Positions 725 to 58,247 of a stretch of 64,000 nucleotides of DNA are shown in pieces. Source of the DNA: Kalaharituber pfeilii. Taxonomy: Eukaryota; Ascomycota; Pezizomycetes; Pezizales; Pezizaceae. The stretch covers positions 248,001 through 312,000 of the forward strand of contig WHUZ01000018.1 of NCBI GenBank assembly GCA_015179045.1. Direction: 5' to 3'. The notes below the pieces were generated by a model that was not told the origin of the DNA, searched no databases, and was given only the letters and a program-made list of their open reading frames with translations. Within the stretch, counting starts at the first letter, position 1. Every line of letters starts with the position of its first letter. The position numbers were made by a program, and so were the translations under genes.

Positions 725-785
725 TTTTTTTTTTTTTTTTTAATATCACGTAACCCCGCTTGCAGCTGTTCGCCATGGCAGGGCG
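725..785 (-). mobile_element. Hairpin-A micro-insertion
   Basis: A poly(T) run is followed by the reverse complement of a hairpin whose stem is CCCTGC/GCGGGG and which ends TTACGTGAT before poly(A). It is flanked by an 11-bp direct repeat AGCAGGAGGCT (714-724 and 786-796). The hairpin is the 3' terminus of the Tad-like LINE at 5955-13137. Only that terminus is present. Confidence 0.85.
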
Positions 786-961
786 AGCAGGAGGCTAAGT
801 AGCCCTTAACCATAGTGGATGGAAGGGATAATGACCCATATCATAATGAAAGGCTAGATTGATAGCTGTTGGTACAGGAGTTGAGAGATATACTCTAGAT
901 CTTGCAGAGAATTCAATCTGCTAGCCTTGCAGATGGTACACGTATAAAAAAGTTAGGCATG

Positions 962-1020
962 TTTTTTTTTATTTTTTTTTATATCATTACTCGCATGCCG
1001 CCCTATGGGCTATGGCGAGG
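962..1020 (-). mobile_element. Hairpin-B micro-insertion
   Basis: Poly(T) is followed by the reverse complement of hairpin B (outer stem CTCGC/GCGAG, inner stem GCCC/GGGC, then TAATGATAT). The 12-bp target duplication AAGTTAGGCATG flanks it (950-961 and 1021-1032). The insert contains nothing beyond the hairpin and poly(A). The same hairpin ends the LINE fragment at 45934-47269. Confidence 0.85.
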
Positions 1021-1924
1021 AAGTTAGGCATGTGGCTGCAGATGGTGAGATACAAAATTATGATTTGAAGGTCAACGGACGCAGGTGAATAATTGAATGA
1101 TGCCTCACAACAAGCACATGACCAAGAAGCAGGATTGAAAGGACTCCTGGATTGAAGTTGCGAGACAACTTCCCAGGCCCAGAATACCATTTTGTGCCTC
1201 AGGTACAGTTAAGGCAACCTTGTGTGCAGGAAGTTGGGGTATGTTCGCAGAAAACATGTTTTGACTGTTACGCAGTGACAAAAAGACAGGCCATGCAACT
1301 GTCCCAGATCAGTTGGCTCCATGAACTGATGAGGATTGCGATATACCTGAGGGAGTACTCTCTTGAGGCCAGCTTGTATACATCCTTTCTACGAAGTTCC
1401 CCAAATGAAGTAGCTACGTAAACTTGCCCTCAAGGGCAGGGGAAGATTTGCTTTTACTGTCACGTTTAGGCTCACTTCAACACTGATGCTGACGTTGTCA
1501 GGATGCTTGTTGCAAAAGTCTCTGTGACCAGGATATCGAGAGGACTGATGGGAAAGAACAGCTAGGGTGGAACTAGGGGCGAGATTGATGATTTCATTTG
1601 AAGACTATGAATATGATGCCGCGGTGGTAGACCATAAAGTGATGAAAACATGTAAAGCAATTGAGGAAAGGCTATAGATATCAATCACCTGATTCTCTCG
1701 ACTCTACAAACAGTAACTTGTCGTGCCTCATGCGCCACCCTGTTCACAATGCTCCAGTCTTAGCCAGGTGCAGTTTGATGGATGTATGCAATTTTGTTAG
1801 CTCCCATATTACGATTAATACCAATTGCCATCATCATAATTGCCATCATCATTATTACCATCATGATAGCAATCATAGCCACGATAATAACCATTGCTAT
1901 AGTTATCAAAACTGCAATCGTCAA

Positions 1925-5954: not shown

Positions 5955-6357
5955 CACCGACAACTACTTTCAGAGAACGAGCGCTTGGAGGAACGCCAAC
6001 TTCCCAGCGCACTCAGAACTCAAAATTACATTGGAGCGAAGCTCGGGACCGCCCGAGAAAGAATATCGACTTTATTTCTCAGAATTCAGAGGTTACAGAC
6101 TCGTTTCGTTCAGGTCAAGGTTTCAGAGTTTTCTGAGTTCCTCCCATACAAATCGCGACAAGCGAGGCACTCGTGCCCCGGCACACCCGCTTGGCACTGA
6201 GCTAGCGAACGGGGACCTAGAAGAAACAAGGGCAGAAAAGTGGACCACCTTCAATTTTGGGAATAGCGCCGAAGCTAGTCCCAAAGCGGCGACACCCAGT
6301 TAAGGGTAGACACAAGGAAGGCAGGAGAAGGCGGTAAGAGAGGAGGTAAATAGGAAA

Positions 6358-9333
6358 ATGTCGGTGGAAGAAGACACTTCCAAGATGGAATTCTTGGGAC
6401 CAGTAGGAGATGGATGGACGGGGGAGGTGTATGTGATTGACAGGAACAAGGTATGGTGTGTGGATGAGATCCACACATGGGAAAGGAAGGATTGGTGGTT
6501 GGCAAGGGTAGGGGAGGCAGGGGATATGAGTACAGTAAAAGAAAGGGTAGAAAGGGCATTAAAAAAGGGCGGAGAGTACGATGGGCAGCTAGATATGATC
6601 GACAAGTTGAGAAAGGATGCCATCGCAGTGGCTCAAAGAAGGGGGGTACCGGAGGTGATGTGGGTAGAAACTGGAGGTTTGACCGGGGTCGGAGAAGTAG
6701 CAGCGGTAGTCAGACACTGGAGTGCGGATGCAGCGATATTTAGAAAGTACGAGGAGGGGAAGGACGGGATTGTGATTGTGAAGGAGAAAGAAGCCATGGA
6801 GAATGCCACCAGGGAATGCATTACGGTGAAGAAGGGACCTATAGTGGTTTTCAAGAAACAGCAAGTCACCCCAAGGACGACGAGAGTAATGATGAGCTGG
6901 GGAAGGAGGGAAGGGACAGAAAGAGAAAGAAGTGCCTCTCCATGTGAGGGAAGAAGCAGAAGAAGTCAGGGGAGGAGGAGAGAGATCAAGGAGATTGGAG
7001 ACTCACAGCCGAATCTTGAGCCGACAGCTCAGATCTTACCGACAGTGCAGGAAGAAGAGAGAGGAGAGGTGGAGAGAAGGGACTCGGAGCAGGAGGGGGA
7101 GACCGAGGGAGGAGTTGATGAAGAGATGGAGGAGGGCGGAGAGGAGGGAGGAGAGGAGGAGGAGAATGAAGAAGAAAGCGAGGAAGAGGAGCAGGGGCAG
7201 GGGCTAGGTAAGGAGGGAAAGACAGTGTTAGCACTAGTGCATGCAGCGCAAGTGCTGGTCAAGAAGGAGGAGGTGCTGAAAGAAAAGGGAAAGAAGGGGG
7301 AGGCGAAGGCAGTGGAGGCAACACGGCAGCGGGTAGCAGCCGTTTTGGGAACGACCATATTTGAGAAGGGATGGAAAGAGTTGAGGAAGAGAATGGAGGA
7401 GGGGGAGAAGGGGATGAGGTATACGAGGAGGTGGGAGACAACAGGGGAGGAGGTGAAGAGGTGGAAGGAGGAGGCGAGAGAGGCATGGAGGCAGAAGAGA
7501 AGGGCGAAGGAAACGGAGATGGAGGAGAGAATGACAGCTCTGGAGGGGATGGTGAGAGAGATGCATGTAGCGATGGGGCTGGCCTCAGGGAAGGAGGAGA
7601 GGTGGCTAGAAAAAGAAAAGAAGAAGAGAGAGGAGGAAAAGGAAGAGGAGGAGAAGAGGAGGAAGAGGGAAGCAGAAATCCGGGAAATCCGGAAGTGGCA
7701 GGAAGAGACAGAGAAGAAAAAGAAGAGGGAGGAGGAGAGGCGCAAAAAGGCGGTAGAGGAAAGCCAGAGGAAGATTGCAGAAGAAAGAAGGGCAACGGTG
7801 GAGAGGGCGGAGGTTTTGAAGGAGGTGGCGGAGGTGATGGAGATGCCCGGAAGCTCACAAGTGAAGGTGGCAGCTCTAGAGGAGAAAGAGAAGAAGTTGA
7901 AGGAAGAGGCGGTGAGGGCAGCAATGGAGGCGGAAAAGAGGATTGAAGGGGAGGACTGGACAATAGTGAGGGGGAGGAGGTTGTGGAAGAGAACTTTGAG
8001 GACAGTGCATAAGGCGGCAGTACCGTTCGGAAAGGAGGGTGTGGAGGAGAGAAATATTTTGATGAAGAGGTGTGAGTCATTGTGGGAGACAACAGCGAAA
8101 GAGGAAGGCGAGAGAGGGTGGAGGGTGACGCGAGTGGAGAGGAACTCGGCGGCTTCCAAGTTCGAGAGGACTTGGTTCTTAGTAGACATCGGAGAGAAGG
8201 AGAGCCAGAAGGAGGTGATGGAGAAGTTCGCGGCATGGATGCGCCTGATCTTTGGAGAGGATCTCGTGAGAGTGGAGGTCCACAACAAGGATGCGGTCCC
8301 TCTGGTAATGAAGGGGGCTGACTATGAGGAGGGAAGGGAGGATGTGGAGGTGATGAGGAAGAAGTTGAAGGAGGAAAACCCAGACATCAAGTTCGGGTCC
8401 AGGCCACCAGTGCGCTTCGGTGCAGTACCACCCATGGGGAAACCGCGAGTTTCTCAGCTCAAGTTCGAGGTGGTGGATGCGGATGAGGCAGTGAAGGTGT
8501 TGAAGAAGGGTTTGGTGTGGAGGGGGCAGAAGAGAGTGGTAGAAAGATATAGGCCAGGGGGGCACATGCAGGCGGAGGTGCGGGTGAGTTACGCCAACAT
8601 GGCGGCCAACATGGTGGCAACAGCGGGGGTAGGAGGGCAGCAGCAGCAGCAGCAGGGGCAACAGCAGCAGCAGCAGCAGCAGACGTGGAAGGGAGGGGTG
8701 GGGTATAATGTGTACTCGAGGGGACAAGTCATTCCTCCGGGAATGGGTTTTGGACCACTGGGTGCAGGTCAGCAAGTGCAGGTAATAGGAACGCAGTTGG
8801 GCAGCCAGGGAAGGCAGGGGACGGGTTGCTTCAAGTGCGGAAAGAAGGGGCATCTGGCGCGGGAATGCAGGTTCCAGAAAGGCCAGATGGCATGTTATGC
8901 GTGTGGCAGGTGGGGCCACATCGCAAGAATCTGTCCGGAGCGACCAAAACCGGTTACTCCAAATCAGAGCCAGAAGAGGGAGAGAGTGGAGGAGACCCCA
9001 ATGAAGAAGAAGCAAGAGGAGTCAAGCAAGGCGGCAAAGGTAGGGGAGACGAAGGGGAAGGAGAAGGCGGTGGAGACCGATAAGATGAGGACCGGAGTGA
9101 AGGTCTCGGGAGTTCTGTCGGAAGACTGGGACGAGAAGGGGAAGCTGCTGGAGCTGAAGGGCTTCCTCAAGGCAAGAAAAGGGGGAGAGAGAATGGAGAT
9201 CGATGAGAGAGACGATATGGAGGGGTCAAGGCACCGACCGCGAGTGGTGCTGGGAGATTTGTTTGGAGGTATGGACCTGCCGGGAGATGGATGGGAGGCA
9301 GAGAGCAGCGGGGTACCGAGAGCCTTATGGTGA
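6358..9333 (+). CDS. LINE ORF1 gag-like RNA-binding protein
   Basis: A 991-residue protein. The first about 200 residues have no motif I recognise. A Glu-rich acidic tract lies near 230-290, followed by a long Lys/Glu-rich, probably coiled-coil region (about 300-560). A probable RRM-like segment (about 595-740) precedes a polyglutamine run near 761-780. Two CCHC zinc knuckles follow: CFKCGKKGHLARECR from residue 824 and CYACGRWGHIARICP from residue 846. Lys/Glu-rich sequence makes up the C-terminus. The family role is to coat element RNA and chaperone it to the target DNA. The stop (9331-9333) overlaps the likely ORF2 start as ATGGTGA, suggesting coupled termination and reinitiation. Confidence 0.9.
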   Translation: MSVEEDTSKMEFLGPVGDGWTGEVYVIDRNKVWCVDEIHTWERKDWWLARVGEAGDMSTVKERVERALKKGGEYDGQLDMIDKLRKDAIAVAQRRGVPEVMWVETGGLTGVGEVAAVVRHWSADAAIFRKYEEGKDGIVIVKEKEAMENATRECITVKKGPIVVFKKQQVTPRTTRVMMSWGRREGTERERSASPCEGRSRRSQGRRREIKEIGDSQPNLEPTAQILPTVQEEERGEVERRDSEQEGETEGGVDEEMEEGGEEGGEEEENEEESEEEEQGQGLGKEGKTVLALVHAAQVLVKKEEVLKEKGKKGEAKAVEATRQRVAAVLGTTIFEKGWKELRKRMEEGEKGMRYTRRWETTGEEVKRWKEEAREAWRQKRRAKETEMEERMTALEGMVREMHVAMGLASGKEERWLEKEKKKREEEKEEEEKRRKREAEIREIRKWQEETEKKKKREEERRKKAVEESQRKIAEERRATVERAEVLKEVAEVMEMPGSSQVKVAALEEKEKKLKEEAVRAAMEAEKRIEGEDWTIVRGRRLWKRTLRTVHKAAVPFGKEGVEERNILMKRCESLWETTAKEEGERGWRVTRVERNSAASKFERTWFLVDIGEKESQKEVMEKFAAWMRLIFGEDLVRVEVHNKDAVPLVMKGADYEEGREDVEVMRKKLKEENPDIKFGSRPPVRFGAVPPMGKPRVSQLKFEVVDADEAVKVLKKGLVWRGQKRVVERYRPGGHMQAEVRVSYANMAANMVATAGVGGQQQQQQGQQQQQQQQTWKGGVGYNVYSRGQVIPPGMGFGPLGAGQQVQVIGTQLGSQGRQGTGCFKCGKKGHLARECRFQKGQMACYACGRWGHIARICPERPKPVTPNQSQKRERVEETPMKKKQEESSKAAKVGETKGKEKAVETDKMRTGVKVSGVLSEDWDEKGKLLELKGFLKARKGGERMEIDERDDMEGSRHRPRVVLGDLFGGMDLPGDGWEAESSGVPRALW

Positions 9334-12300
9334 AAGTGGGGTACCTAAACGTCGGGGGGTCGTCCGTGGTAGGACATGTGTGGAGGGAGAATATCTTCAA
9401 GGAGGGTTGGGAGTTAGGTTTCGAGGGAGAAGTTTGGAAGAGAAAGGAGGAGTCCGGGTGGAAGACGGGATCGCATCCAGCCCTGAGGAGGGTGGGGGAG
9501 GTGGGGGCAGGAACGCGAGTAGTAGGATGGGAGAGAAGCAGTAAGAGGAGTGCGAGGGGGAGGAGGGGGGGAGAGAATGTAGTATGGGGTAGGGTGGGTG
9601 AGGTTTTGGTTGGGGGAGTATATGCTAATGGAGGGTGGAGGGAGGAGGAGTTTGAAGGGTGGGTGGAAGAGGTGACGAGGGTGGAGGGGAGATGTGTAAT
9701 CATGGGAGACTGGAATGCGCATAGCCCGATGTGGAGTTTAGAAGGAACTGGGGAGAACGGAAAGGGTAGGAGACTGAGGGAGAGAATGGAGGAGGCCGGC
9801 TTTACCTTGAAGGGAGAAAGAGTAGGGACGTGGAGGAGAGAAGTGGAAGGCAGGGTGCGAGAATCGAGAATAGACTTGGTGTGGGTAAGGGGGGTAGAGG
9901 GGGTGCAAGTAGAGCTGTGGGAAGGGGGCTCAGACCACTCAGGACTGGTAGTGGAGTGGGAGGAGGAGAAGGGAGGGAGAGAAATGGAAGAGAGGGTGAG
10001 AATTGATTGGGAAAGGGTGGAGAAAGAGGTCGAGGGGTGGGGCGGAGAATGGGGAGACGAAGAGAAGAAGAAGTGGCTTGAAAGGGTAGGAGAGGGGAGC
10101 GGGTATGAGAGACTAAAACGATGGAAGGAGTCTCTGGAGAAGAAAGTAAGGGTAGGAGGGAAGAGTAAAAGGTGGTGGACGGAAGAGATTGAAGAGATGA
10201 GGAAAGAAGTCAATAGGCTGGCGCGAGGGGGGGTGGGAGCGAGGGCGAGGTTAACAGAGGATGAGAGAGTGAGGGGGTGGAAGGCGGCGGTACAGAAGCT
10301 GAAGTGGAAGATCCGAGAGGAGAAGAAGAGGTGCTGGAGGGACTTCGTGGAAGAGGAGGGGCACAGTGACCCATGGAGAGTGGTGAGGGTAGCAAAGGAC
10401 CCTTTCGGAGGTAAGGAGAGAATGGGGGCGCTGGTAGATGAGGAGGGGAGAGATTTGGAAGAGAACGAGGAGAAGGTGAGGGCATTGGTGAGAAGGAATT
10501 TTGAATGGAGGGAGAGTGGAGAAAACGAGGGGAAAGAGGTAGGAGGGGACCAGGGGGTAGGAGAGATAGATGAGAGGGAGAGAAAAAGGGTAGAGAAGGA
10601 AGTGAGGGTCGCGCTACAGGGCACCAAGAATAACTCGGCTCCGGGACCAGACGGAATCGGGTACCGGTTGATCAAGGCGGCCTTGAGGACACCTATAGGT
10701 GATGAGCTGGTGAGGGAGATCACTGAGAATTGGATTCGAAACGAGATTCCGAAGGAGTGGAAGGAGATGCGGGTGGTCATGATACCCAAGCCGGGGAAGG
10801 ATATCAAGACCACGAAAGCATGGAGGCCCATCAACCTGATCAACTGCATTGGGAAAATTGGGGAGAAGGTGATGGCTAACAGGCTGCAGAAAGAAGACCG
10901 ACTTTTCCATAGGCTTCAGTTGGGAGCTCGGAAAGGAAGGAATGCCACTCAAGCAATGGCAAGAGCAGTGACAAAGGTACAGAGGTGCCTGCACAGGGGA
11001 GGAAGGGCAGCATGGGTGACAGCGGATGTCAAGGGTGGCTTTAACATCGTGAGGAGGGAGATAGTTCTGAGGAGGATAGAAGAGAGAGGGAGTGAGGAGA
11101 TTAAGAAGAAAATGGGGTGGCTGGAGAAATTCATGGGGGGGAGGGAGTTTGGGGTGTGGTGGGATGATGAGGAGAGGGGGAGAGGCAGGTCGAACGTGGG
11201 AGTGCCACAAGGGTCCCCACTCTCGCCAGTCATTTTTCTAATCTTCATGGCGCCCACAATCGAGAAAATGGAGGAGAGGGTGAGGAGGGTAGCCACTGGA
11301 GCGGAGGTGGAGGTGCTGTCATATGTGGACGATTTAGCTGCGACGATCCTGGATTGGCACGGCTATTGGGATATGGGACGATTGAGGGAGAAGGTGAAGA
11401 AGGTGATGGCAGAGGTGGCAGAGGAAGATCAGGTCCCGCTGGAGGAGTCGAAGTGGGAGATGATAACGTTTGGCGTAGGAAAGAGGCAGAAGAAGGAGGG
11501 GGAGTTTCTGAAGTGGCTGGGGGTCATCTTTGATGAAAATTTGACCTTCACGGCACACTGGAAAAACAGAGTCAGCAGAGCAAGAAGGTTGACCGGAGCA
11601 CTAGCGGGGTTGGGAAATAGGGATTGGGGAATAAGCCCGAGGAGCTGGAGACAGATTTATACGGGCATGATTAGAGCGGTGGCCATGTGGGGTAGTGAGA
11701 TAGGTTGGAGAGGACAGAAGGAGTGGAGAAGAGAAATGGAGAGAGTACAGCTGCAAGCATTAAAGAAGGCAGCTGGAGGGGGGAGAGGCACAGGGGTAGA
11801 GGGGGTGAACGCAGTGTGCGGAGTGGAGGGGGCGGAGGTGATCCTGGACGCAGCACAGGCAAGGGCGATAGTTCGGGAAGTGGAGGTACCATCGGAGCTT
11901 GCAGAACTATGCACAGGAGATTTCAGGAGAGGGAATGAGGAGAAGGAGGAGGGGACGAGGAACTGGAAGGACTGGGGGGTGCAGTGGGCCCTGGAAGAGG
12001 GGGATGGATATGAAAGCGTTTTGGACCGCTGGCAGGGGCAGTGGTCAAGGTTCTCGGAGGAGGGCGAGGAGATCTCATGGGGAGGAGAGTGTGAGAAGGT
12101 GAAAGTGGAGTGCGCAGAGAGGCTAGGTAGAAAGGGGGGAGGGAGAGAAGAGTGGGAGACCTCGGTTGAGGAAGCCGGAAGAGGGAGAGCGGTTCTCTTC
12201 TCGGATGGTAGTAAGGTCGAGGACAGCAAGGTGGGGGCGGGGGTGTGGGGGAGATCAGCGGTGGTGGCGGAGGTAGTAGGGAGAACGGCGACGGTTTTTG

Positions 12301-12953
12301 ACGGGGAGGTGAGGGGGGTGAGAAGTGCGCTGGAGAGTGTACCGGAGGAGGTACCGGTCCTGGTTTGCTTAGATTCTGAAGCTGCTGTCATGGCGATTCA
12401 GAAGGCAGGCAGGGAGGGAAAGGGAAAGACGGAGGATGTGAGAAGGGTGGTGAATGCAGTGGCGAGGAGAAAGAAGAAGGGGGGGGATGCGAAACTGTTG
12501 TGGGTAAAAGCTCATATCGGAATCGCAGGCAACGAGAAGGCGGATGAGTGGGCAAAGAAGGGGACGGGGATGCAGGGTAAGGAGGTGGCCACTGGAAGTG
12601 GAGTGCGCCAGAGGGTGAAAGCGTGGAGGAAGGAGAGGAGAGAAGTGGAGGGCTTTGGAAAGGGGAAGGTTATGGAGTGGAATAGGACAGCGGTGTCCAA
12701 CTTCACTGCCATGCGCCTGGAGAGAGGAAGGTGCGGGGTGTGGTTGAAGAGGATGGAGGTGGCGGAATCGGACAAGTGCAGCTGCGGGGAGGCCCAGACG
12801 GGGGCGCACCTAGCCTTCCAGTGCAGTCAGCAGAGGTTTCGCCCAGAAGGCTTTAGAGAATGGGGGGATATGGGGAAGAACTGGAAAAGGACAGCAGAGA
12901 ATGGGGAGGAGTGGGATGAGTTGGAAAGGTTCTTCTCCGGGATCAGGTTCTAG
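9327..12953 (+). CDS. LINE ORF2: endonuclease, reverse transcriptase, RNase H
   Basis: About 1208 residues from the ATG at 9327; an in-frame ATG at 9291 also exists. I prefer 9327 because the APE-type endonuclease begins at once (KVGYLNVGGS). Further endonuclease motifs are GDWNAH (127-132), SRIDLVW and SDHSG (202-206). Reverse transcriptase shows NNSAPGPDG (about 434), TADVKGGFN, PQGSPLSP (from 627) and the catalytic YVDD (666-669), followed by FLKWLGV. RNase H has FSDGSK (Asp960), an acidic DGEV, LDSEA and KAHIGIAGNEKAD (His1063). A Cys/His cluster (CSCGEAQTGAHLAFQC) near residue 1150 is typical of these C-termini. Together these would nick target DNA and reverse-transcribe the element RNA by target-primed reverse transcription. 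All catalytic motifs look intact. Confidence 0.93.
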   Translation: MVKVGYLNVGGSSVVGHVWRENIFKEGWELGFEGEVWKRKEESGWKTGSHPALRRVGEVGAGTRVVGWERSSKRSARGRRGGENVVWGRVGEVLVGGVYANGGWREEEFEGWVEEVTRVEGRCVIMGDWNAHSPMWSLEGTGENGKGRRLRERMEEAGFTLKGERVGTWRREVEGRVRESRIDLVWVRGVEGVQVELWEGGSDHSGLVVEWEEEKGGREMEERVRIDWERVEKEVEGWGGEWGDEEKKKWLERVGEGSGYERLKRWKESLEKKVRVGGKSKRWWTEEIEEMRKEVNRLARGGVGARARLTEDERVRGWKAAVQKLKWKIREEKKRCWRDFVEEEGHSDPWRVVRVAKDPFGGKERMGALVDEEGRDLEENEEKVRALVRRNFEWRESGENEGKEVGGDQGVGEIDERERKRVEKEVRVALQGTKNNSAPGPDGIGYRLIKAALRTPIGDELVREITENWIRNEIPKEWKEMRVVMIPKPGKDIKTTKAWRPINLINCIGKIGEKVMANRLQKEDRLFHRLQLGARKGRNATQAMARAVTKVQRCLHRGGRAAWVTADVKGGFNIVRREIVLRRIEERGSEEIKKKMGWLEKFMGGREFGVWWDDEERGRGRSNVGVPQGSPLSPVIFLIFMAPTIEKMEERVRRVATGAEVEVLSYVDDLAATILDWHGYWDMGRLREKVKKVMAEVAEEDQVPLEESKWEMITFGVGKRQKKEGEFLKWLGVIFDENLTFTAHWKNRVSRARRLTGALAGLGNRDWGISPRSWRQIYTGMIRAVAMWGSEIGWRGQKEWRREMERVQLQALKKAAGGGRGTGVEGVNAVCGVEGAEVILDAAQARAIVREVEVPSELAELCTGDFRRGNEEKEEGTRNWKDWGVQWALEEGDGYESVLDRWQGQWSRFSEEGEEISWGGECEKVKVECAERLGRKGGGREEWETSVEEAGRGRAVLFSDGSKVEDSKVGAGVWGRSAVVAEVVGRTATVFDGEVRGVRSALESVPEEVPVLVCLDSEAAVMAIQKAGREGKGKTEDVRRVVNAVARRKKKGGDAKLLWVKAHIGIAGNEKADEWAKKGTGMQGKEVATGSGVRQRVKAWRKERREVEGFGKGKVMEWNRTAVSNFTAMRLERGRCGVWLKRMEVAESDKCSCGEAQTGAHLAFQCSQQRFRPEGFREWGDMGKNWKRTAENGEEWDELERFFSGIRF

Positions 12954-13075
12954 GGCGCCGTGCGGTTTGCCGTCGGGGAAGTTTGCTTGCCGGGGTGCGA
13001 AAGTGTGGAGAAGAGGGGAGGGGGGAGAGGGGGTTTGTTAAGCCTGTCTCCGGGCTTCGAGGGCTTGCCCAGGGA

Positions 13076-13105
13076 CCCTGCCATGGCCACGTGCTACAAG
13101 CGGGG
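13076..13105 (+). promoter_or_regulatory. 3'-terminal hairpin A of the LINE
   Basis: CCCTGC can pair with GCGGGG (one G-T wobble) around an 18-nt loop. The poly(A) tract begins after a short TTATGTGATTT spacer. By analogy with stringent LINEs this is probably the structure the reverse transcriptase recognises. The same stem recurs in more than ten dispersed micro-insertions in this window. Confidence 0.6.
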
Positions 13106-13150
13106 TTATGTGATTTAAAAAAAAAAAAAAAAAAAAATCTGGCCTGCCGA

Positions 13151-13263: not shown

Positions 13264-13299
<36 letters not shown>

Positions 13300-13680
13300 T
13301 TCATTACTCGCATGCCGCCTATCAGGCTACGGCGAGATGAAGTGGTTGTATTGGATATGCCACATCCGTGCCACTGGGTCAATACGTCAATATTAACTCT
13401 ATAGTGCAAGAAAAAAAAAAATACAAGACCCGATTTCTACAGTAAAGTGTGCGTCGATTGCGTGTTCAATTATCGTACAATTGTAGCCCAATTATAAAAA
13501 TGTCAGGATGCTGTGTTCTACCAGGATATTGCGTACAACCGGCATATTGCGCACTTCCGGAACATGAGACTTTTTGCAATAGTAACATGGAAGTATTATG
13601 AAACTTTAGAGTAATGTCATTAACATACTCTGAAATATATTCTGAGCCCCAGCTTGCATCTATCAGAAACAATATAATGT
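13151..13680. other. Non-coding stretch with one hairpin insertion
   Basis: No gene is visible apart from the hairpin-B insertion at 13268-13336. Short imperfect repeats of a GTACAACCGGCATATTGCG-like motif occur near 13520-13560. Confidence 0.5.
13268..13336 (-). mobile_element. Hairpin-B micro-insertion with compensatory stem change
   Basis: A poly(T) tract of about 35 is followed by the reverse complement of hairpin B, flanked by the 11-bp repeat ATGAAGTGGTT (13257-13267 and 13337-13347). The inner stem reads GCCT/AGGC instead of GCCC/GGGC, so both sides changed and pairing is kept. The insertion starts exactly at the CTCGCC base of the hairpin. Confidence 0.87.
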
Positions 13681-14720: not shown

Positions 14721-16288
14721 TCTCTGATGGTTGCAAACTAAGACACTAAAACTACTCTTTCATATATAATTGAGATGTACTTAAATTTCTGATATAATTG
14801 AATTACTTAGTAATTTGTAATAGTCTTATTTTCACTTATCTGAGGTTGTGCAATATTCCGGTAAAGTACAGTATGATCTAGCGGTCGTGGGTGTATTAAA
14901 GCTGCGGTACGAAATTGCCTGTTTGTAGGTTTGTGGAGCTTGACCCAGTATGCATAGATTGTGTTCATAAGTGGAGGTACATACAGCACTAGGTGTGTAT
15001 GTAGAGTTTGTTATAGTTACTAGCCTTGGCCGCACTTTGCCGCTAATGATTCTTGTTATTAAATTGGGCCAAATGTGTGCAATCACTGTGTAGGTAAATG
15101 TGGGAGTCTGGGCACGAGAACAGGTAATTTTGCAATTTCCTTCTACTTTAGGGGTTCAGCTTCCGAATGCAATTATTTGCATATATCTATGAGAGATTGA
15201 ACTATGCAAATAACTGTAAGGCTACTGCAGATTTGCATTCCTCCACCGGTATTTTTTACATAGGGTGGAATATGAGGCTCAAGTATCCCAGCATTCCATT
15301 ATTTTATTGCAGGTCTGTGGTGTAATCGTCAACACAATCAAGTTCGCAGCGAGGGAGGTAATGTGCGAATTGAAGTTCAACGATTTCTCGAAAAGGCATG
15401 GAATAATTTGTCGCATTAAACTTTTACAGAACTACTCGAGTAGGCACCCAAAGGCACGTAAGTGCTAGAGGAACACTGACCTACCACAGGGTCAAGGGTG
15501 AGTCTCCAAAAATCTAGATCGATCGCAATTGTAGCGGTAATCACTAGTAGACATGACAAGATGCTAGACTCGACTTGTTCAACCAACGGATGCGTGATCA
15601 AAATTGTCTGTCTCACGAGCAGCTTTCTCCGATACAGGAACCACGTAACTAGGCACAACAGCATGGTATAAGTTCAACAACGTAATAATTAGCTACCTTA
15701 GCTGCCCTGCCATAGCGACAGGGTTAAGCGGGGTAAAAAAAAAAAAAAAAAAAAAAGCAACCTCAGCTACTGGTATCTTTTACGAGGGTTCGGAGAATTT
15801 CTTTCACGCCGGGCAGACCTTCTTTGATCATAAGGTGAACCTCATATTAATTTGCTGAGGACTTGGGATACTGTTAGTGGTTTGATTGTTCATGAACTCA
15901 ATTAGGATGCGGAACGTTAAAGACACTTTGGGTTACAGTGGGGTACAAGTTCGTGTATCATGTTTAAACGATCAACCTACTTGAGGCTGTAGGCTGTATG
16001 ATTCTTCATATTTTCTTTATTACCTCAGCTATGCAGATTTCGATTTCAAGGTTTCAACTGGCAGAGATACGAGCAGGCTCTGCCAAATGTGCACCATACC
16101 TCTGAAGCAGAGCGCAATATGCATAGTTGCCCACAGATGTGTAATTTATGTTAGACAGTCGTGTTAGGATAATAGCTGGCTGTTAGCTGATCCTTCTTTA
16201 CCTCCGAAACCTAAACAGGCTCAGGCGACCTTCAGCATCTCAATCTCTCCCCAGTGCCAACTAAACAAGTGGTCAGCCATCATCAACT
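14721..16288. other. Intergenic stretch upstream of the membrane-protein gene
   Basis: No coding region is supported. It contains a hairpin-A insertion (15704-15755). A pyrimidine-rich stretch just upstream of the ATG at 16289 (CATCTCAATCTCTCCCC) is a plausible promoter-proximal or 5' UTR segment. Confidence 0.45.
15704..15755 (+). mobile_element. Hairpin-A micro-insertion (older)
   Basis: It begins GCCCTGCCATAGC, contains AAGCGGGGT and ends in about 22 A. The flanks AGCTACCTTAGCT (15691-15703) and AGCAACCTCAGCT (15756-15768) are a 13-bp duplication with two differences, so this is an older event than those with perfect duplications. Confidence 0.8.
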
Positions 16289-18404: not shown

Positions 18405-21400
18405 TTTTTTTTTTTTTTTTTGTTTGTTAAAAAAAAATCACATAACCCCGCTTACAGCGCCAAGCCATGGCAGGGTCCCTGGGCAAGTCCTCGAAGCCCG
18501 GAGACAGGCTTAACAAACAAAGAACTTTCTATCTACTTCTACACCCTGAATCCGGAAACCCTGATTCCAGAAACCTCCGGACGGTCCTTCCGGTTTCTGC
18601 CTCAGGGAGGCCCCACTATATATCCCCCTCTGCCCCCTCCCCTCTCCCCCACACCTTCGCATCCCGGCAAGCAAACTTCCCCGACGGCAAAATATTTCGC
18701 AGTTTCCTCCACACCTTCGCAACCTGCGAATTTTTCCCGACCCGGGTCGGTAAACCGCGCGGCGCACAAAAAAAAAACCCCTCCACACCTTCGCAAACCG
18801 GCCCGAAAATTATCGCACGGCGCGCTCCTAAAACTTGATCCCGGAAAAGAACCTTTCCAACTCATCCCACTCCTCCCCATTCTCTGCCGTCCTTTTCCAG
18901 TTCTTTTCCACATCCCCCCATTCTCTGAAGCCTTCTGGGCGAAACCTCTGCTGACTGCACTGGAAGGCTAGGTGCTCCCCCGTCTGGACCTCCCCGCAGC
19001 TGCACTTCTCCGATTCCGCCGCTCCCATCCTCTTCAACCACCCAGCACACCTTCCTCGCTCCAGTCGCAATGCAGTGAAGTTTGATGTCGCCACCCTACT
19101 CCACTCCATGACCTTTCCTCCTCCAAACCCCTCTATCTCTCTCTTCTCTTTCCTCCACGCCTTTATCCTTTGGCGCACCCCACTCCCGGTGGCCACCTCC
19201 CTCCCCTTCTCCATCGTCCCCTTCTTTGCCCACTCATCCGCCTTCTCATTTCCTGCAATCCCAATGTGAGCCTTAACTGTTAGAGATCTACAGTAATGTC
19301 GGAGTGTCGGAGGTGTCGGATATCAGAGAGGTCCGTGATAAAGGGTGGTAAGGGCCCGAGAGCAACCTCATGCTCTATGTATATAGGTGTATTACTTTGG
19401 CTACTCTCTCTACGAAGGAATAACAATCATCTCTTTCTACCAAAAGCTCAACATTAACCCACATCAGTTTCGCATTACCCCTCTTCCTCTTCCTCCTTGC
19501 CACCGCATCTACTACCCTCCTCACATCCTACGTCTTCCCCTTCCCCTCTCTGCCTGCCTTCTTAACCGCCATGACGGCAGCTTCTGAATCCAGACAGATC
19601 AGGACCGGTACCTCCTCCGGCACACTCTCCAAGGCTCTTCTCACTCCCTCACCTCCCCATCGAACACTGTCGCTGTCCTTCCCACCACCTCCGCAACCAC
19701 TGCCGATTTTCCCCCCCTACCTTGCTATCCTCGATCTTGCTACCATCCGAGAAAAGGACCGCCCTCCCTCTTCCAGCTTCCTCAACCGAGGTCTCCCACT
19801 CCTCCCTTCCCCCTTCTTTCTTCCCAGCCTCACCGCGGTCTCCACCTCCACCTTCTCACACCCCCCTCCCCACGAAATCTCCTCCCCCTCCTCCGAGAAC
19901 CTCGCCCACTGATCTTGCCAGCAGTCCAGCACTGCTTCATACCCATCATTCTCGACCACCGCCCACTGCACCCCCAGTCTCTCCAGTTTCTCGCCTCCTC
20001 CTCCCTCTCCTCACTTCCTCTGAAGTCGCCCGTGCAAAGCTCCGCCAGCTCTGACGGCGCCTCCACCTCCCGGACGATCGCTCTCGCTTGCGCGCCATCC
20101 AGGACTGTCTACACGTCTTCCACTCCGCAAACCGCATTCACCCCTTCCACCCGGCACCTCTCCCCCCTCCAGCTGCTCTCTTCAAAACTTGCAGCTGTAA
20201 TCGCTCCATCTCCTTCTTCCACTCCTTCTGGCCTCTCCACCGATCTTACTCCCCCACATCGCCACCGCCCTCACTATCCCTGTGTACGCCTGCTGCCAGC
20301 TCCGTGGTGACATCCCCCCATCCCCACTCCCGGTTTCCCAGTCCTGAGAGTGCCCCTGCCAGCCTCCTCGCCCTACTCAGCCTATTTCGCCAATGCGCAC
20401 TGAAGGTCAGCTTCTCATCGAAAATGACTCCCAGCCACTTCAGCATCTCCCCTCCTTCTTCCACCTTTTCCCCACTCCGAAAGTTATCATCTCCTACTTC
20501 GACTCCTCCAGCGGGATCTGATCTTCTTCCGCCACCTCCACCATTGCCACCTTCACTTTCTCCCTCAGCCGCCGCATATCCCAGTACTCGTGCCAGTCCA
20601 GGATCGTTGCTGCCAGGTCGTCGACATACGATGGCACTTCTACCTCCACCCCCATCGCCACCCCCCTCAGCCTTCTCTCCATCTTCTCAATGGTGGGTGC
20701 CATGAAGATGAGGAAGATGACCGGTGACAGTGGTGACCCTTGCGGAACCCCCACGTTCGACCTGCCCCTCCCTTTCTCCTCGCCGTCCCACCACACTCCG
20801 AACTCCCTGCCTCCCATAAGCTCCTCCAGCCACCTCCGCTTCTTTCTCACCCCCTCGCTCCCCCTCTCCTCAATCCTTCCCAGGACCACCTCCTTCCTCA
20901 CGATGTTAAAGCCTCCTTTAATATCCGCCATCACCCATGCTGCTCTCCCCCCCTGTGCAGGCACCTCTGCACCTTTGATACTGCCCTCGCCATCGCCTGG
21001 ATCGCATTCCTCCCCTTGCGTGCTCCCAGCTAGAGCCTGTGGAAGAGTCGGTCTTCTTTCTGCAGCCTGCTGGCCATGACTTTCACCCCGATCTTCCCGA
21101 TACAATTGATCAGGTTGATTGGCCTCCACACTTTCGCCATCTTGATGTCCTTGCCCGGCTTCGGTATCATGATAACCCTCATCTCTCTCCACTCCGCCGG
21201 GGTCCTGTTCCGGATCCAGTTTTTGGCGATCTCCCTCACTAACTCATCTCCGATGGGAGTCTTCAGGGCAGCTTTGATCAATCGGTATCCGATTCCGTCA
21301 GGTCCCAGTGCCGAATTGTTTTTAGTGCCCTGCAACGCAGCCCTCACTTCCCCTTCCACTCTCTCCCTCTCCCTCTCGTCCCCCTCCCCCTCCGCTTCCC

Positions 21401-25206: not shown

Positions 25207-25208
<2 letters not shown>

Positions 25209-25245
<37 letters not shown>

Positions 25246-39735: not shown

Positions 39736-39745
39736 ATGACTGTTG

Positions 39746-42820: not shown

Positions 42821-42872
42821 GCCCTGCCATGGCGAACAGCTGCAAGCGGGGCTACGTGATGTAATAAAAAAA
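42821..42872 (+). mobile_element. Hairpin-A micro-insertion (type example)
   Basis: A 52-nt insert begins GCCCTGCCATGGCGAACAGC, completes the GCGGGG stem and ends in TAATAAAAAAA. A perfect 11-bp repeat GGGTCAATCGT flanks it (42810-42820 and 42873-42883). Its short tail and perfect flanks make it the cleanest example of the class. Confidence 0.9.
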
Positions 42873-43227: not shown

Positions 43228-43289
43228 CTTTTTTCTTTTTTTTTTGTTCACATGACCCCGCATACAAGCATCAGGCCTATGGCAGGGAT
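43228..43289 (-). mobile_element. Hairpin-A variant micro-insertion
   Basis: A T-rich tract and reverse-complement variant hairpin lie between AGGTATG repeats (43221-43227 and 43290-43296). Confidence 0.8.
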
Positions 43290-43848: not shown

Positions 43849-43909
43849 CGACCTGCCATAGCAAACAGCGATAAGCGGGGTTACGTGAAATTAAAAGAGG
43901 AAAAATATA
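43849..43909 (+). mobile_element. Hairpin-A micro-insertion
   Basis: CGACCTGCCATAGC leads to AAGCGGGGTTACGTGA and an A-rich tail. The perfect 9-bp repeat CCACGTAGC flanks it (43840-43848 and 43910-43918). Confidence 0.85.
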
Positions 43910-45933: not shown

Positions 45934-47269
45934 TTTTTTTTTTTTTTTTTTTTATATCATTACTCGCGTGCCGCCCTGGGGGCTATGGCGAGATTAGTTA
46001 CATAAGATTAGATACATATGAAGGTAGAAGAAAAGGAATAAGAAAAGATCCTGCGTGTCTCCTATGCCCCTGCCCACTCCAAGATGTCTCTAAGTGGGTC
46101 TGTGTCCTTGCTCTTCGGAGGAGTGACCAAGTCTTGCATGCCTCCTGGCCACTTTCGTTTCCATGTCCTGCACCTAGTGAGCACATGTTCAGTAGTCTCC
46201 TCCTCCTCCCCACACCATCGACATTCTGGGCTGTCTGCTTTCCCGATTTCGTACTGCCATTTCCGTAGTAACTTGCCGCCCAGTATTCCTGCTAGTGTGG
46301 CTATGTGTTGACTTCCAAGTCTTGTCAAGGGACGGTAGCTGAGCCCTAGCCGGTTTCTCTCTGTGGCGCGCTGATGTCTCGAGGTTTGTCGTATCCCATC
46401 TTCTGTTATGGTTTCATCTTGGTAGGGGAGGCATGTGCCTATTTTCGCAGCTGTGTCTGCCTCGGTGTTCCCTTTGACTCCTATATGGGACTTGACCCAC
46501 ATCACTGCAACGTCCCAGTCACCTCGGTCTGTTCTCGCTTTCCAGGCGTCTCTAACCAGTTTTGCCGGTCCTTTGTGGGTGGGCTCTCCCTGGGCGATCT
46601 TTAGAAGCTTGGATATCGATACCTTAGAGTCGGTTATGATCAGGAGTTCCCCAGCTTGATTGCGTAATGCTTCGCTCATGGCAATGAGTTCTGCATCATT
46701 GACAGTAGTCTGTTCCCCTAGGTATGTGGAAGTAGAGGTGTCTTTTGCGTAGGTGCCTAGGCCTGTCTTGTAATCTATCCTGCTCCCGTCAGTGTAGACG
46801 GAGTTCCACCCCTCGTCCTCGGCATTGGCTATGGCATTCTCGAACTCGAGCTTGTCTGCGTCCGCAGGTAGTGCTGGTAGGATGGCTAGTGGTAGGGGGT
46901 TGTTGTGTGAGAGAGACCCCCGTAGGTACCTGCACTCATTATCCCTGTTTTGGATTATCTCATCGTGGAACCGTAGGGCCCTGGCTTCTACCCTCTGGCG
47001 TTCTCCTTCTAGGAATGTTTGGGCTGATTCTAGGTTGGCTATTCCTTCGACTACGTCTCGCCTGGTACCCCACGGGGCTGCAGTAATCTTCTGTGCTACT
47101 GTGTATTGCCATTTTTCTATGTCTTTGATCTTGGTTGCTGGTGGAGACTGTCTTGAGTAGTCCTGCCATGCCCAGCATCCCCATGTGGCGATTGTGCGTG
47201 CGATGCTTGTATATATCTGTCGTTTCTTGCCTGGTGTGAGGCGAGTTAGTCTCGATGCCACTCCCCATG
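45934..47269 (-). mobile_element. 5'-truncated LINE (family B) inserted in GTPase 3
   Basis: A 1.34-kb fragment in reverse orientation is flanked by a perfect 13-bp repeat GAGAAAGACATGA (45921-45933 and 47270-47282). Left to right on the plus strand it shows poly(T), hairpin B, 3' UTR and the 3' part of ORF2. Its intact frame and perfect flanks suggest a recent event. It identifies the source family of the hairpin-B micro-insertions. Confidence 0.92.
46062..47261 (-). CDS. LINE-B ORF2 C-terminal part: RT thumb, RNase H, zinc cluster
   Basis: About 399 open residues, 5'-truncated. The first 60 residues (TPGKKRQIYTSIARTIATWG) match the post-RT region of Tad-like LINEs. RNase H motifs follow: VYTDGSR near residue 170, an acidic NDAELIA, LLIITDSK and VKSHIGVKGNTEAD. 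The C-terminus carries CRWCGEEEETTEHVLTRC, a CCHC-type cluster. No endonuclease or RT catalytic motif is present, so it is inactive alone. Its sequence is clearly distinct from LINE A's ORF2. Confidence 0.88.
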   Translation of the reverse strand: MASRLTRLTPGKKRQIYTSIARTIATWGCWAWQDYSRQSPPATKIKDIEKWQYTVAQKITAAPWGTRRDVVEGIANLESAQTFLEGERQRVEARALRFHDEIIQNRDNECRYLRGSLSHNNPLPLAILPALPADADKLEFENAIANAEDEGWNSVYTDGSRIDYKTGLGTYAKDTSTSTYLGEQTTVNDAELIAMSEALRNQAGELLIITDSKVSISKLLKIAQGEPTHKGPAKLVRDAWKARTDRGDWDVAVMWVKSHIGVKGNTEADTAAKIGTCLPYQDETITEDGIRQTSRHQRATERNRLGLSYRPLTRLGSQHIATLAGILGGKLLRKWQYEIGKADSPECRWCGEEEETTEHVLTRCRTWKRKWPGGMQDLVTPPKSKDTDPLRDILEWAGA

Positions 47270-54602: not shown

Positions 54603-54606
54603 TACT

Positions 54607-57320
54607 CATATTTTTTTTTTTTTTTTGGGGGGGGGGAGGTGGAGGGGAAGGTTTATTTATACAAGTGGTACGACAGGTGCGTACGTATGTAGAGGGACGG
54701 AATGGGTATTAGCGGGTATACCCAAGTTCTTGGTATGGGAGATATGGAATCTGGGGTCAGGGGAACCTGTTTAAAAGTTCAGGGTAAGGGATTTTTTTCG
54801 TAGCGTTATATCCTGGTATGTAACCTTTTGGCTATGACAGAGCACAACTGATGTGCGTGAAAGAATAACTATGTACACTACAGGACTATTTTCCTCCTAT
54901 CCTAGTCACTTCCGCCACCGCCACCACAACGTCCTTGAGTTTATCCACATCTCCCTTTTTCAGCCTCAGGCCTTCTTCTTAAGTCTTTCCTACACCCTTC
55001 TCTTCGGCTCCTATAACTCAATCCATCTCTTCTTCCCCATCATTTTAACATTCTTCTGACAGCCTCAGGGAGCCTCCTCTATATCCGCAACTTCGAACGT
55101 TACCATACTTGAGGCCGCCTTTCTCAGGCTGGCGGGTCCATCCCATCGCTATATGGCTTCCGGTTCCTAGTGCACATTGCCAGGTTTCTCCTTCTTGATG
55201 TTGGTTCTATTCTGCGCGTCTGTGACCGAGTCCTTTTGTTACTGGTACTCGCTGAGCTACCACCTTAATCTTTCGTAGGTCCTTGATCCGGCATCCCACC
55301 ATATCCTACTCGCGCTTTGCTATTGATCTTATCTCTCCCATCCATCTCGGCTTCCTTATTGAGCCCTGAACTCTGTCTCTTGCCCCTTTCTTTCCATCTC
55401 CTTCTCTTTATGCTTTCTTTCTACCTCCTTCCTTAGTCTCTCCGCATGATTTTGCTCCTGGAGCATAGCCAACCGCATCTGGGGCGTGCATGCTCACCCG
55501 CATCTCTTCCATTCTTCTGACCATCATCTATCCCCTTCCCTCTTCCTTTCCAGTCATTAGTTTTCTTGCTCCCTCGTAATCCTTCCTCGGGTGCCAGATT
55601 GAGTCCAAATTGATGCACATCATTCTTTCCCACCCCATCTTTACCTCCTCATATTTATCCTACACGGTCCTCCGTCCTTATTCCATATAGGCCTCCATCC
55701 GGAAGTGTCCCTGTTGCTACTATAGCTTGTACCGCCTTCTGTCCGAGTTTGGCCTTGTTTTCTTCTCCTTTCTTTAGCAAATGCAACCGCTTTGTCTCCT
55801 AATTCCGTATCGTCTCTGACCTCCTCCTCCTTTTCCTCAACTCCACGTGTCCCCCTCCTTCCCCGCATTGCATTCCCTGTCTTTTACTTCGTTCTCTCTC
55901 TCCTTGATTTCCCTGTCTGGCGGAACCTCTCGCTATGTATTATTCCCGTCCGGCTGGGGGTCGGGGATCTCTAGTCTCATCAGCATTGTCTCCTCCGGTT
56001 CGTTGTGTTGAGCCGACGGGAGTAATTCTCGCGCCAAGTGATAAATGAATTATGGGGCGGAAGGATTAACTGTAGCGCTAATAAAGAGGTGCCTGTAGCG
56101 TCGGATCATCTTTAGTCAATCAATCGTCTAATCTTCTCCGCTCGATACTTGTGTTTTATATCATGTTATTTCCTGTCGGCAGCGATGGTAGTGTTGGCAA
56201 GATCGGGGCCACCAGTTGATTTAGCAGTGACCCTATATGTGTTCACCCTTGGGATATGAATACCTCTCTCTGTCCTGGCACTGCTGTTCCAAACAGGTTT
56301 ATCTTGCCCCGGCTTCTATTCTCTTCCTCCCCTCTATCCTCATCCTCATTTTCTTCTTCCAAACATCGCAAATGGTGATGCTACCCCTATTCCTCCTTTG
56401 CTGGGGACCACTCTTGCCTCACCCCCCTCGTTCTAGTCTTTCTTAGGGCTTTGTACTCCATTGTGAAGCATATTCCTGCCTTCTGGTTGTTGACCACAGT
56501 AATCTTTCTTGTCTCTTCCTCATCTTCCTTGTATCTCCTCTGCACTTGCGTCCCATCTCTCTCTAGCTCCTTGTGCAAGGCCTCTTCCATGATCCCCCTT
56601 ATTAGAAGCCTTTGATTTAGTTTCTCTCTGAATTCTTGGTGAGAGAATCTCACTCAGCCTCTCTAGCCTACACGTTTTATCACCCCTGTCCTTTCTTTAT
56701 CGCAATTCCCACTCTCCGCTGCATGTCCATAATCAACGTGATAGTACCCTTTTGGAATTGTTTCACTTCTTTATCGTCCTTTCAATTGCCTCCCCTCTTC
56801 CACCTCCCATTTGCCTCCTCTTCTGGTATAGAATCCCTTGACTTCCCATTTTGTCGTTTCCTCTAGTGTGAACTGGCTCTCTCGTTGGTCAATTTGCTTG
56901 TCTTTGTTGCACCGATGGACAAATTCTTGCGGCCTCACGCGGATGGGCTGTTGAACCAGCGGATGATTCTGTCCGAGTATAGTTCCTTTCACGCTCTTGA
57001 TACTTTCTCTCTATTCCATTCCTTTTCCCTTACAGTACAATTCGACTGTTCTTCCTTCCTGTCTAAGATCCCTTGGATATCGTAATGAGGCAAACAGTTC
57101 TGTACGTGATTTGTTGTGGCTGCTTAGCTTGCGGCTCAGGCGGGCCACTTCTCTTCATGTGGCTTCGTGCGACAGCGTCTAGGTCGAATACATTGTTAAT
57201 GCCCTGCCGTCCCGAGCCCAGACAGTAGAGATACTTTTCTGCTTAGGGTTTTTTTTTTTATTCTCCTTTTCAACATCATCACTGGTATACCATCCTAAGG
57301 GCTATGACGGGGTTTAGGAA
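54607..57320 (-). mobile_element. Decayed LINE-like relic(s), minus strand
   Basis: The minus strand is purine-rich with broken Lys/Glu-rich frames (55868-55641, 56653-56387, 56992-56771) like the ORF1 coiled-coil regions of the LINEs here. Degenerate hairpin-B-like tails with T runs occur at about 54791-54840 and 57248-57320, each at the left end expected for a minus-strand copy. No domain can be named. Confidence 0.4.
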
Positions 57321-58188
57321 TATTTGTTGGTGAGGGCTGCAGCTGTCAGTGGCTTCCTAAACAACCTAGACCTCATAATATTCGATCTTGTGAACGAAAA
57401 ATTCGTGCTGCAAATTTGATAGTGTTATTACTCAGGCGGTGCTGAGCTTCGTTTTGATGTCTTTCTCCGTGTCGGTGGTTGGAGAGAATCTGCCAGGGGG
57501 TATAGTGACGGTTGCTTCCTTCAGTATTTCGGAGATAAACCACAAACGGCTGGCTTCGCTTGCCCTTCTTTGGATAGGGCAGATTTGATATAATTTTCTG
57601 GCTCGCCAGTGCATCATTGATGCATACTTGACTATGTTCCACATCGACATCTACTGGGGCTGTGAGGGGACTTGGGTCTGGCCCCTCGTATGCAATGGGC
57701 TCGAGGCCGAGAGCACGAGGCGAATAGCACGAGGCAGAGTGAGATGTATATTGAAGTCTAGAGGAACAAAATTCCAGGAGTTCCCCCTCCCTGGAAGGAC
57801 CCTCCATACCATCTCGCTATCGCTACTACCCCAAGAGGTAACATCTCGCTACCACGCTATCGCTACTACCCCAAGAGGCAACATCTCGCTACTACCCGAA
57901 GAAGTAACCTCACAGGGGCGGAGGGATGTTCATCATAGAACTCCACCTCTGAATGAAACTCTGCTTTGAATTCATTCCGAGTCCAGCTGGAAAATGGCCC
58001 CTGTTTTGTTGATATCACGAGCTTTATTGGTCCCAAGAGAGCTCCGGCTTTAACAGTAAAATTATCTCAGGCAGTAGCCAGAGTAAGTCATATTTTACCG
58101 TTCAGATCCTGCCATTCAAAGCTCACATCAGAAGCCTCAGTTCCTTCGGGGAAGTTGAATTCACGTTCGGATTGAACTCTTTTGCGAA
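57321..58188. other. Unassigned stretch with a 41-bp tandem repeat
   Basis: About two and a half units of an ATCTCGCTA/CTACCCCAAGAGG-containing repeat lie at 57811-57915. Open frames on both strands have no recognised domain. Confidence 0.4.
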
Positions 58189-58247
58189 TCGCCATAGCCC
58201 GAAGGGCGGCAAGGGATTAATGATATAACAAAAAAAAAAAAAAAAAA
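58189..58247 (+). mobile_element. Hairpin-B micro-insertion
   Basis: It starts TCGCCATAGCCCGAAGGGC, continues to GGGATTAATGATAT and a poly(A) tail, and is flanked by a perfect 11-bp repeat TCTTTTGCGAA (58178-58188 and 58248-58258). The inner stem is GCCC-GAA-GGGC. Confidence 0.87.

What the first reader, a model, noticed from the sequence alone, without database searches (positions are those of the whole stretch)
725..58247. A class of retro-insertions made only of a LINE 3' hairpin plus poly(A)
At least 15 dispersed inserts of about 45-80 nt contain only hairpin A or hairpin B and an A tail. Most have target duplications of 6-14 bp, many perfect (for example 714/786, 950/1021, 13257/13337, 25195/25288, 42810/42873, 43840/43910, 58178/58248). 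Nearly all start within one to four bases of the 5' base of the hairpin stem (GCCCTGC or CTCGCC). Random 5' truncation would not give a fixed start point. Either reverse transcriptase stops on leaving the hairpin, or the hairpin RNA exists as a separate template, that is, a SINE reduced to the LINE recognition structure. LINE ends are known to act as RT recognition hairpins; dispersed hairpin-only copies are what seems unusual.
Basis: partly seen in the sequence, partly recalled or inferred. Interest (0 to 1): 0.87.

Follow-up and report, generated by a model that had tools for sequence, protein, structure and literature searches.

The report
Hairpin-only LINE inserts in a fungus
A fungal genome carries a large number of insertions of about 60 bases that contain nothing but the last hairpin and the A-tail of its LINE retrotransposons and that start at the foot of the hairpin, so the few dozen bases that end a LINE seem to be enough for a mobile template.

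Summary
The window is from a 78-Mb fungus (one gene's only database relative: Kalaharituber pfeilii, 89%). Three hairpin types (A, B and a third, C) end LINEs, one of which is full length in the window (5955-13136). In the held DNA I found 297 hairpin copies; in 74 the target duplication ends at the hairpin foot, giving inserts of 46-87 nt. Of 269 copies not selected on their 5' side, 135 had a callable start; 57 of these fall in a 7-nt span at the foot (8.1 per nt), against 0.04-0.22 per nt over the next 300 nt of LINE. Hairpin-only and truncated-LINE inserts share duplication length, tail length and target bias, so the same machinery made them. No promoter motif was found, and every subtype counted genome-wide also occurs on LINEs, but the share without LINE flank runs from about 20% to 90% between lineages. 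Best explanation: LINE RNA reduced to its folded 3' hairpin plus poly(A), perhaps by nuclease trimming of a protein-bound RNA, serves as template. RT stopping at the hairpin exit is not excluded. Closest precedent: Drosophila suffix. A new, extreme variant of a known kind.

The parts
725..785 (-). hairpin-only insert, type A (61 nt); duplications 714-724 and 786-796
   Evidence: counterpart without the insert at window 22802-22912, 83% with two gaps
963..1020 (-). hairpin-only insert, type B (58 nt); duplications 950-962 and 1021-1033
   Evidence: uninterrupted counterpart at window 22643-22757
5955..13136 (+). full-length LINE A (7182 nt), ORF1 6310-9333 (zinc knuckles), ORF2 9207-12953 (endonuclease, RT, RNase H); 14-bp duplications 5941-5954 and 13137-13150
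   Evidence: an ORF2 copy at 100% identity on another contig
13074..13114 (+). hairpin A at the 3' end of the full-length LINE
13268..13336 (-). hairpin-only insert, type B (69 nt); duplications 13257-13267 and 13337-13347
15704..15759 (+). hairpin-only insert, divergent A-like hairpin (56 nt); 9-bp duplications with one mismatch, 15695-15703 and 15760-15768
   Evidence: recognised by eye
18437..18476 (-). hairpin A at the 3' end of a LINE copy
   Evidence: LINE 3' UTR upstream
24798..24860 (-). hairpin-only insert, type A, starting with A (63 nt); duplications 24787-24797 and 24861-24871
25209..25286 (-). hairpin-only insert, type C (78 nt); 15-bp duplications 25194-25208 and 25287-25301
31008..31050 (-). 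insert holding only the last 16 nt of hairpin B plus A-tail; 13-bp duplications 30995-31007 and 31051-31063
39681..39735 (+). hairpin-only insert, degraded type C (55 nt); duplications 39671-39680 and 39736-39745
42821..42872 (+). hairpin-only insert, type A (52 nt); duplications 42810-42820 and 42873-42883
43228..43288 (-). hairpin-only insert, type C (61 nt); 8-bp duplications 43220-43227 and 43289-43296
43849..43909 (+). hairpin-only insert, type A (61 nt); duplications 43840-43848 and 43910-43918
   Evidence: recognised by eye
45934..47269 (-). 5'-truncated LINE B ending in hairpin B (1336 nt; RNase H ORF 46062-47288); duplications 45921-45933 and 47270-47282
58189..58247 (+). hairpin-only insert, type B (59 nt); duplications 58178-58188 and 58248-58258
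22643..22912 (+). related segment lacking the 784 and 1019 inserts (empty sites)

Best explanation
The inserts are made by ordinary target-primed reverse transcription by the resident LINEs, but the template is a short RNA: the 3' hairpin plus the poly(A) tail. Shown: duplications, tails and target bias like those of LINE copies; start at 0-2 nt from the foot of the stem; hairpin subtypes that also occur on LINEs; no promoter motif found. Inferred: LINE RNA is cut or trimmed from its 5' side (5'-to-3' exonuclease or endonuclease) until the folded, protein-bound hairpin stops it; the remnant still carries what the LINE protein needs to bind and prime, so it is copied to its end and inserted. 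The inserts would then be genomic footprints of the LINE protein on its RNA.
For: Sharp peak: 57 of 135 called starts in 7 nt, 8.1 per nt against 0.04-0.22 per nt over the next 300 nt; 58 real against a mean of 0.1 under swapped flanks. In type A, 15 of the 30 starts called between -60 and +35 are at one single base, the one before CCCTGCC, and 7 more at +2 or +3, as expected where insert and target share a base or two. Same machinery: median duplication 13 bp and median tail gap 22 nt for 67 hairpin-only and for 53 truncated-LINE inserts, similar Y^AA site bias. The hairpin is supported as RNA structure: for type B 95.7% of cells paired, covariation 0.147 against 0.066 shuffled and at most 0.063 slid. 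Hairpin-only copies occur in A, B and C. 9 of 41 type A hairpin-only inserts (6 of 30 distinct sequences) have a hairpin identical to that of a LINE-flanked copy among only 36 such copies held. Two ORF2 copies at 100% identity without stops exist. Empty sites show insertion.
Against: No RNA data: the hairpin-poly(A) RNA has not been seen, and protein binding and trimming are inferred. Some inserts are shorter than the hairpin (window 31050: 16 nt; L044, L070), which RT stopping or RNA nicking inside the hairpin must explain; density at +5..+30 is 0.54 per nt, higher than upstream (some of these 14 are caller artefacts at nested copies). The share of copies without LINE flank differs strongly between lineages, which trimming alone does not predict. 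134 of 269 copies had no callable start. 32 of 41 type A hairpin-only inserts have no identical LINE-flanked hairpin in the held DNA. The number of pairs with double changes in hairpin B is not beyond shuffles (106 of 500).
Confidence: 0.58

Rival explanations
1. The template is intact LINE RNA, and the reverse transcriptase lets go exactly as it leaves the hairpin, because the protein loses its hold on the RNA once the hairpin is unwound.
For: Would give a fixed stop in all lineages; some inserts end inside the hairpin, so early termination seems to occur.
Against: When RT reaches the foot of the 5' arm, the 3' arm is already in the cDNA hybrid, so no hairpin remains to define that position (inference). 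In type A, T precedes the start in 21 of 39 inserts (p about 0.0003 against the 26% T of their duplications), a weak hint of run-off with added purines; type B does not show it (T in 3 of 12 and 4 of 14). Like the best explanation, it does not account for the difference between lineages.
Confidence: 0.25
2. Some hairpin-only copies are a true SINE: a few source loci make hairpin-poly(A) RNA as a discrete transcript and the family multiplies on its own.
For: In lineages with G before the stem, copies without LINE flank far outnumber LINE-attached ones: 90 of 100 listed G-form copies and 121 of 151 of the CTTGG variant. Many hairpin-only variants have no identical LINE-flanked hairpin in the held DNA.
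Against: No B-box core or A-box-like motif in 74 inserts, no tRNA in 273 scanned upstream stretches, no TATA excess (3 of 62 against 2 of 62 control). All four subtypes counted genome-wide have LINE-attached copies. Starts at the stem foot appear in A, B and C, whose hairpins differ in sequence.
Confidence: 0.15
3. They are just the shortest tail of ordinary random 5' truncation.
For: Truncated LINE copies with starts spread from -12 to about -1300 exist.
Against: Bins next to the peak are nearly empty: -25..-3 holds 5, -100..-25 holds 4, the 7-nt peak 57. With equal thresholds (score 11 or more) the bin -4..+4 still holds 32 of 50 (A) and 22 of 71 (B) calls (this set includes the 28 copies selected on the 5' side).
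Confidence: 0.02

Closest known systems
Suffix, Drosophila (3' end of the F element)
   Same: A short dispersed element that is only the 3' end of a LINE, with poly(A) and without the usual Pol III promoter; F-element mRNA cut sites at the very start of suffix are reported (PMC1868783: sections 3 and 8 and passages seen).
   Different: About 300 nt with a short reading frame; here about 41 nt plus tail, non-coding, in three LINE hairpin types, start at a stem foot.
Stringent-type LINE 3' stem-loop (L2 clade; plant L1)
   Same: Hairpin at the LINE 3' end with compensatory changes; the LINE protein of the L2 clade binds such a stem-loop (PMC4176376 abstract and discussion seen; PMC3747384 passages seen).
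   Different: There the hairpin is a recognition site within LINE or SINE RNA; hairpin-only genomic copies are not described in the parts I saw. Binding was not tested here.
5'-truncated LINE copies
   Same: Similar duplications, tails and target bias.
   Different: Start at a fixed point instead of scattered starts. Ohshima's review gives 100-1000 bp for truncated members (PMC3747384 passage).
tRNA-headed fungal SINEs sharing LINE tails (e.g. Mg-SINE)
   Same: LINE tail shared with a LINE (PMC3747384 table passage).
   Different: No tRNA head found here.
R2Tg minimal templates
   Same: 67 nt of 3' UTR suffices for insertion (PMC12222951 passages seen).
   Different: Engineered, site-specific; 50 nt failed there, whereas here about 41 nt plus tail is inserted naturally.

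Membership tests
SINE (Pol III-transcribed) | short, LINE-mobilised, with target duplication and LINE-like tail | tested here: met
SINE (Pol III-transcribed) | internal Pol III promoter or tRNA head | tested here: not met
   0 of 74 inserts with B-box core or A-box-like motif; 0 of 273 scanned upstream stretches with a tRNA; no Rfam match in the window
SINE (Pol III-transcribed) | own lineage separate from the LINE | tested here: inconclusive
   subtypes counted all occur on LINEs, but 80-90% of copies in G lineages lack the LINE flank and 32 of 41 A inserts have no identical LINE-flanked hairpin held
randomly 5'-truncated LINE | scattered 5' ends | tested here: not met
randomly 5'-truncated LINE | same insertion signature as LINE copies | tested here: met
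suffix-type LINE-3'-end element | LINE 3' end only, fixed start, poly(A), no Pol III promoter | tested here: met
suffix-type LINE-3'-end element | transcription of separate copies | not testable with these tools
   no RNA data
stringent-type LINE tail | hairpin at LINE 3' end supported by compensatory changes | tested here: met
   for B (cells and score beyond shuffles, number of pairs not); RNase H ORFs upstream of A and B, of C
stringent-type LINE tail | bound by the LINE protein | not testable with these tools
   needs a binding assay
Tad1 clade | placement of the RT in a tree with Tad1 | not tested
   domain order endonuclease-RT-RNase H of LINE A is compatible; the clade name is recalled

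The most novel reading that the evidence does not exclude
A LINE's 3' hairpin plus poly(A) is a complete natural retrotransposon template: a headless, promoterless mobile unit of about 60 nt generated from LINE RNA by structure-limited trimming and inserted hundreds of times at least (thousands if this window is typical, an extrapolation), so that the genome records the footprint of the LINE protein on its RNA.
Probability: 0.5. Interest if true: 0.82.

Novelty: new variant of a known kind. Interest (0 to 1): 0.72.

Why it matters
It gives natural evidence for how small an RNA a LINE can mobilise, suggests that RNA processing rather than RT failure may set some 5' ends of LINE copies, and provides many independent insertions whose start can be compared with the hairpin sequence. 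It makes the old question of what makes LINE copies short directly testable. It also means that very short A-tailed repeats, easily missed by repeat annotation, may be LINE products in other genomes.

Tried and rejected
tRNA heads, A and B boxes and TATA boxes: none above control (B-box-like motifs upstream in 2 of 297 copies against 8 downstream). 24 of the 297 copies had too little upstream sequence for the tRNA scan. Rfam on the window: no match at gathering threshold. A self-cleaving ribozyme at the hairpin foot was considered; the insert is too short for the families I recall and Rfam gave nothing. An untemplated or cap-derived G at the start of type A was considered and dropped: 4 of 20 fetched G-form copies carry LINE sequence before the G, so the G can be templated. 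A hairpin-only lineage without LINE counterpart was sought with the CTTGG variant: 30 of 151 copies have GGG before the stem, so not found there. Microhomology at junctions did not separate hairpin-only from truncated LINE inserts. Paper searches gave no report of hairpin-only copies; searches returned no paper at all. The sorting of A copies by simple text patterns was rough (it called window 25020 and 43852 LINE-bearing); one search replaces it with an exact AGGG flank. One search was a placeholder script that computed nothing.
Full report
What is in the window. The window lies in a 78.03-Mb assembly of 360 contigs. The one host protein that I searched has a single relative in the protein collection, from Kalaharituber pfeilii, at 89% identity, so this is probably a truffle-like fungus (its family is recalled, not tested). 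A full-length LINE of 7182 nt occupies 5955-13136 with a perfect 14-bp duplication. Its ORF1 has zinc knuckles and its ORF2 has endonuclease, RT and RNase H domains. A second ORF2 at 100% identity without stops sits on another contig, which suggests recent activity unless it is a duplicated segment. Hairpin A lies at its 3' end. Hairpin B ends a truncated LINE at 45934-47269, downstream of an RNase H ORF. RT itself was shown only for LINE A.

The seven duplication pairs named are there, one of them shifted by one base. I count 11 hairpin-only inserts with a recognisable duplication, two of them recognised by eye, plus one insert of only 16 nt of hairpin B; 36668 and 44483 look like one insertion in a duplicated segment. 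So the class is confirmed, the count of 15 slightly high.

Genome-wide counts. Exact 21-23-nt 3'-arm patterns occur 204 (A), 537 (B) and 304 (C) times, reversed controls 0. For the commonest A hairpin, 280 copies have G and 295 have another base before CCCTGCC (97 A, 2 C and 1 T in the 100 listed). The LINE bases AGGG precede that base in 252 of these 575. Among listed copies the flank is present in 10 of 100 G-form and 76 of 97 A-form copies, Fisher p about 8e-24 (listings matched by hand). For C, 174 of 217 copies have the GGT flank. For the CTTGG variant, 30 of 151 have GGG and a purine before the stem. Lack of the flank is an upper estimate of hairpin-only copies, since mutated flanks are missed. 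Of 20 G-form copies fetched, 16 showed no LINE before the hairpin and 4 did. B was not counted this way.

5' ends. I searched the window and loci L001-L118 with profile HMMs of the three hairpins and kept 297 copies after an E-value cut of 0.02 and removal of overlaps and duplicates: 107 A, 145 B, 45 C. Starts were called from target duplications, with swapped 3' flanks as the null. Near-foot calls needed score 9, far calls score 11, which favours the foot; with equal thresholds the peak remains (A 32 of 50, B 22 of 71, C 2 of 8). For C alone the evidence is thin, and its null is high (7 null against 8 real calls at score 11). Leaving out 28 copies selected on the 5' side (20 G-form, 8 DNA-query hits), 269 remain, 135 with a call: 57 at -2..+4, 5 at -25..-3, 4 at -100..-25, 18 at -300..-100, 14 at +5..+30, 37 beyond -300. 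The 134 uncalled copies include LINE-bearing copies longer than the sequence held, old copies and some with poor tails (partly cut output). Ten swapped-flank replicates gave 0 or 1 near-foot calls against 58. In all held DNA 74 hairpin-only inserts were called (41 A, 29 B, 4 C), 63 with perfect duplications of 9-16 bp; of 62 with enough flank none shared its 5' flank with another.

Where exactly. In A, 15 of 30 near calls start at the base before CCCTGCC, which pairs with the U after GCGGGG, and 3 more one base earlier; in B starts cluster at CTCGCC/ATCGCC and two bases before it; in C at the T or C of TCCCTGCC. So the start follows the foot of the stem within about 0-2 nt in hairpins of different sequence.

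Same machinery. Hairpin-only (67) and truncated-LINE (53) inserts have median duplications of 13 bp, median gaps of 22 nt between hairpin and second duplication, and a similar bias around the first nick (C or T before in 82% and 75%, A after). 13 of 70 inserts passed a loose test for an uninterrupted counterpart in the held DNA; two of these, inside LINE C, align at 96-98% without gaps.

The structure. In 70 distinct B hairpins, 95.7% of cells pair; C-G to A-U at the foot (50 and 13 sequences) and C-G to U-A next to the loop (59 and 7) are double changes; covariation 0.147 against 0.066 shuffled (0 of 500) and at most 0.063 when slid. The count of pairs with double changes is not beyond shuffles (106 of 500). 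Free-energy z-scores are modest, -0.1 to -2.8. A-hairpin pairs hardly vary.

Origin. No tRNA in the 273 upstream stretches scanned, no B-box core or A-box-like motif in 74 inserts, TATA in 3 of 62 against 2 of 62, no Rfam match in the window. 9 of 41 type A inserts carry a hairpin identical to that of one of the 36 AGGG-flanked copies held; 32 do not. All four subtypes counted genome-wide occur with and without LINE flank. So the class seems to arise repeatedly from LINE RNA, at lineage-dependent rates that I cannot explain.

Mechanism. A defined RNA 5' end at the stem foot explains blunt starts in three hairpin types. RT stopping on leaving the hairpin is less natural, because the hairpin no longer exists when RT reaches the foot (inference). 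A weak hint of run-off is the T before the start in 21 of 39 A inserts, not seen in B. Inserts ending inside the hairpin show that RT stopping or nicking within it may also happen. I give the trimmed-RNA template 0.58, RT stopping 0.25, a true SINE 0.15.

Known relatives. Suffix of Drosophila is the nearest precedent: LINE 3' end only, no Pol III promoter, with reported cut sites in F-element mRNA at the start of suffix that the authors attribute to RNA silencing and that were reduced in an Ago2 mutant (PMC1868783). LINE proteins of the L2 clade bind their 3' stem-loop (PMC4176376). An avian R2 needs only 67 nt of 3' UTR (PMC12222951). None of the parts I saw describes natural hairpin-only copies.

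Noticed in passing
window 45133-48133: A 1336-nt truncated LINE B sits between two ORFs (45133-45933 and 47240-48133) that look like halves of one AIG1-like, coiled-coil gene (AIG1 match weak, below Pfam's cut-off).
   Followed up: partly
window 654-1100 and 22640-22915: Related segments; the one at 22.6 kb lacks both hairpin inserts present at 0.7-1.0 kb.
   Followed up: yes
window 36620-36800 and 44440-44600: Similar flanks suggest a segmental duplication carrying one and the same type C insertion twice.
   Followed up: partly
L037 about 1480-1545: A type A hairpin insert lies inside a type B hairpin (nested hairpin insertions).
   Followed up: no
window 2100-2330, 2850-3000, 35660-36050: Stretches of GGCCTGG-type repeats (GGCC-rich).
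   Followed up: no
window 25600-25900 and 30000-30330: Imperfect tandem repeats of a unit like ACAGCTTCATCAAGGACCCCTCCGGCGACAGGAAAA.
   Followed up: no
genome-wide, A hairpins: The base before the stem predicts the LINE flank: present in 10 of 100 G-form and 76 of 97 A-form copies listed; reason unknown.
   Followed up: partly
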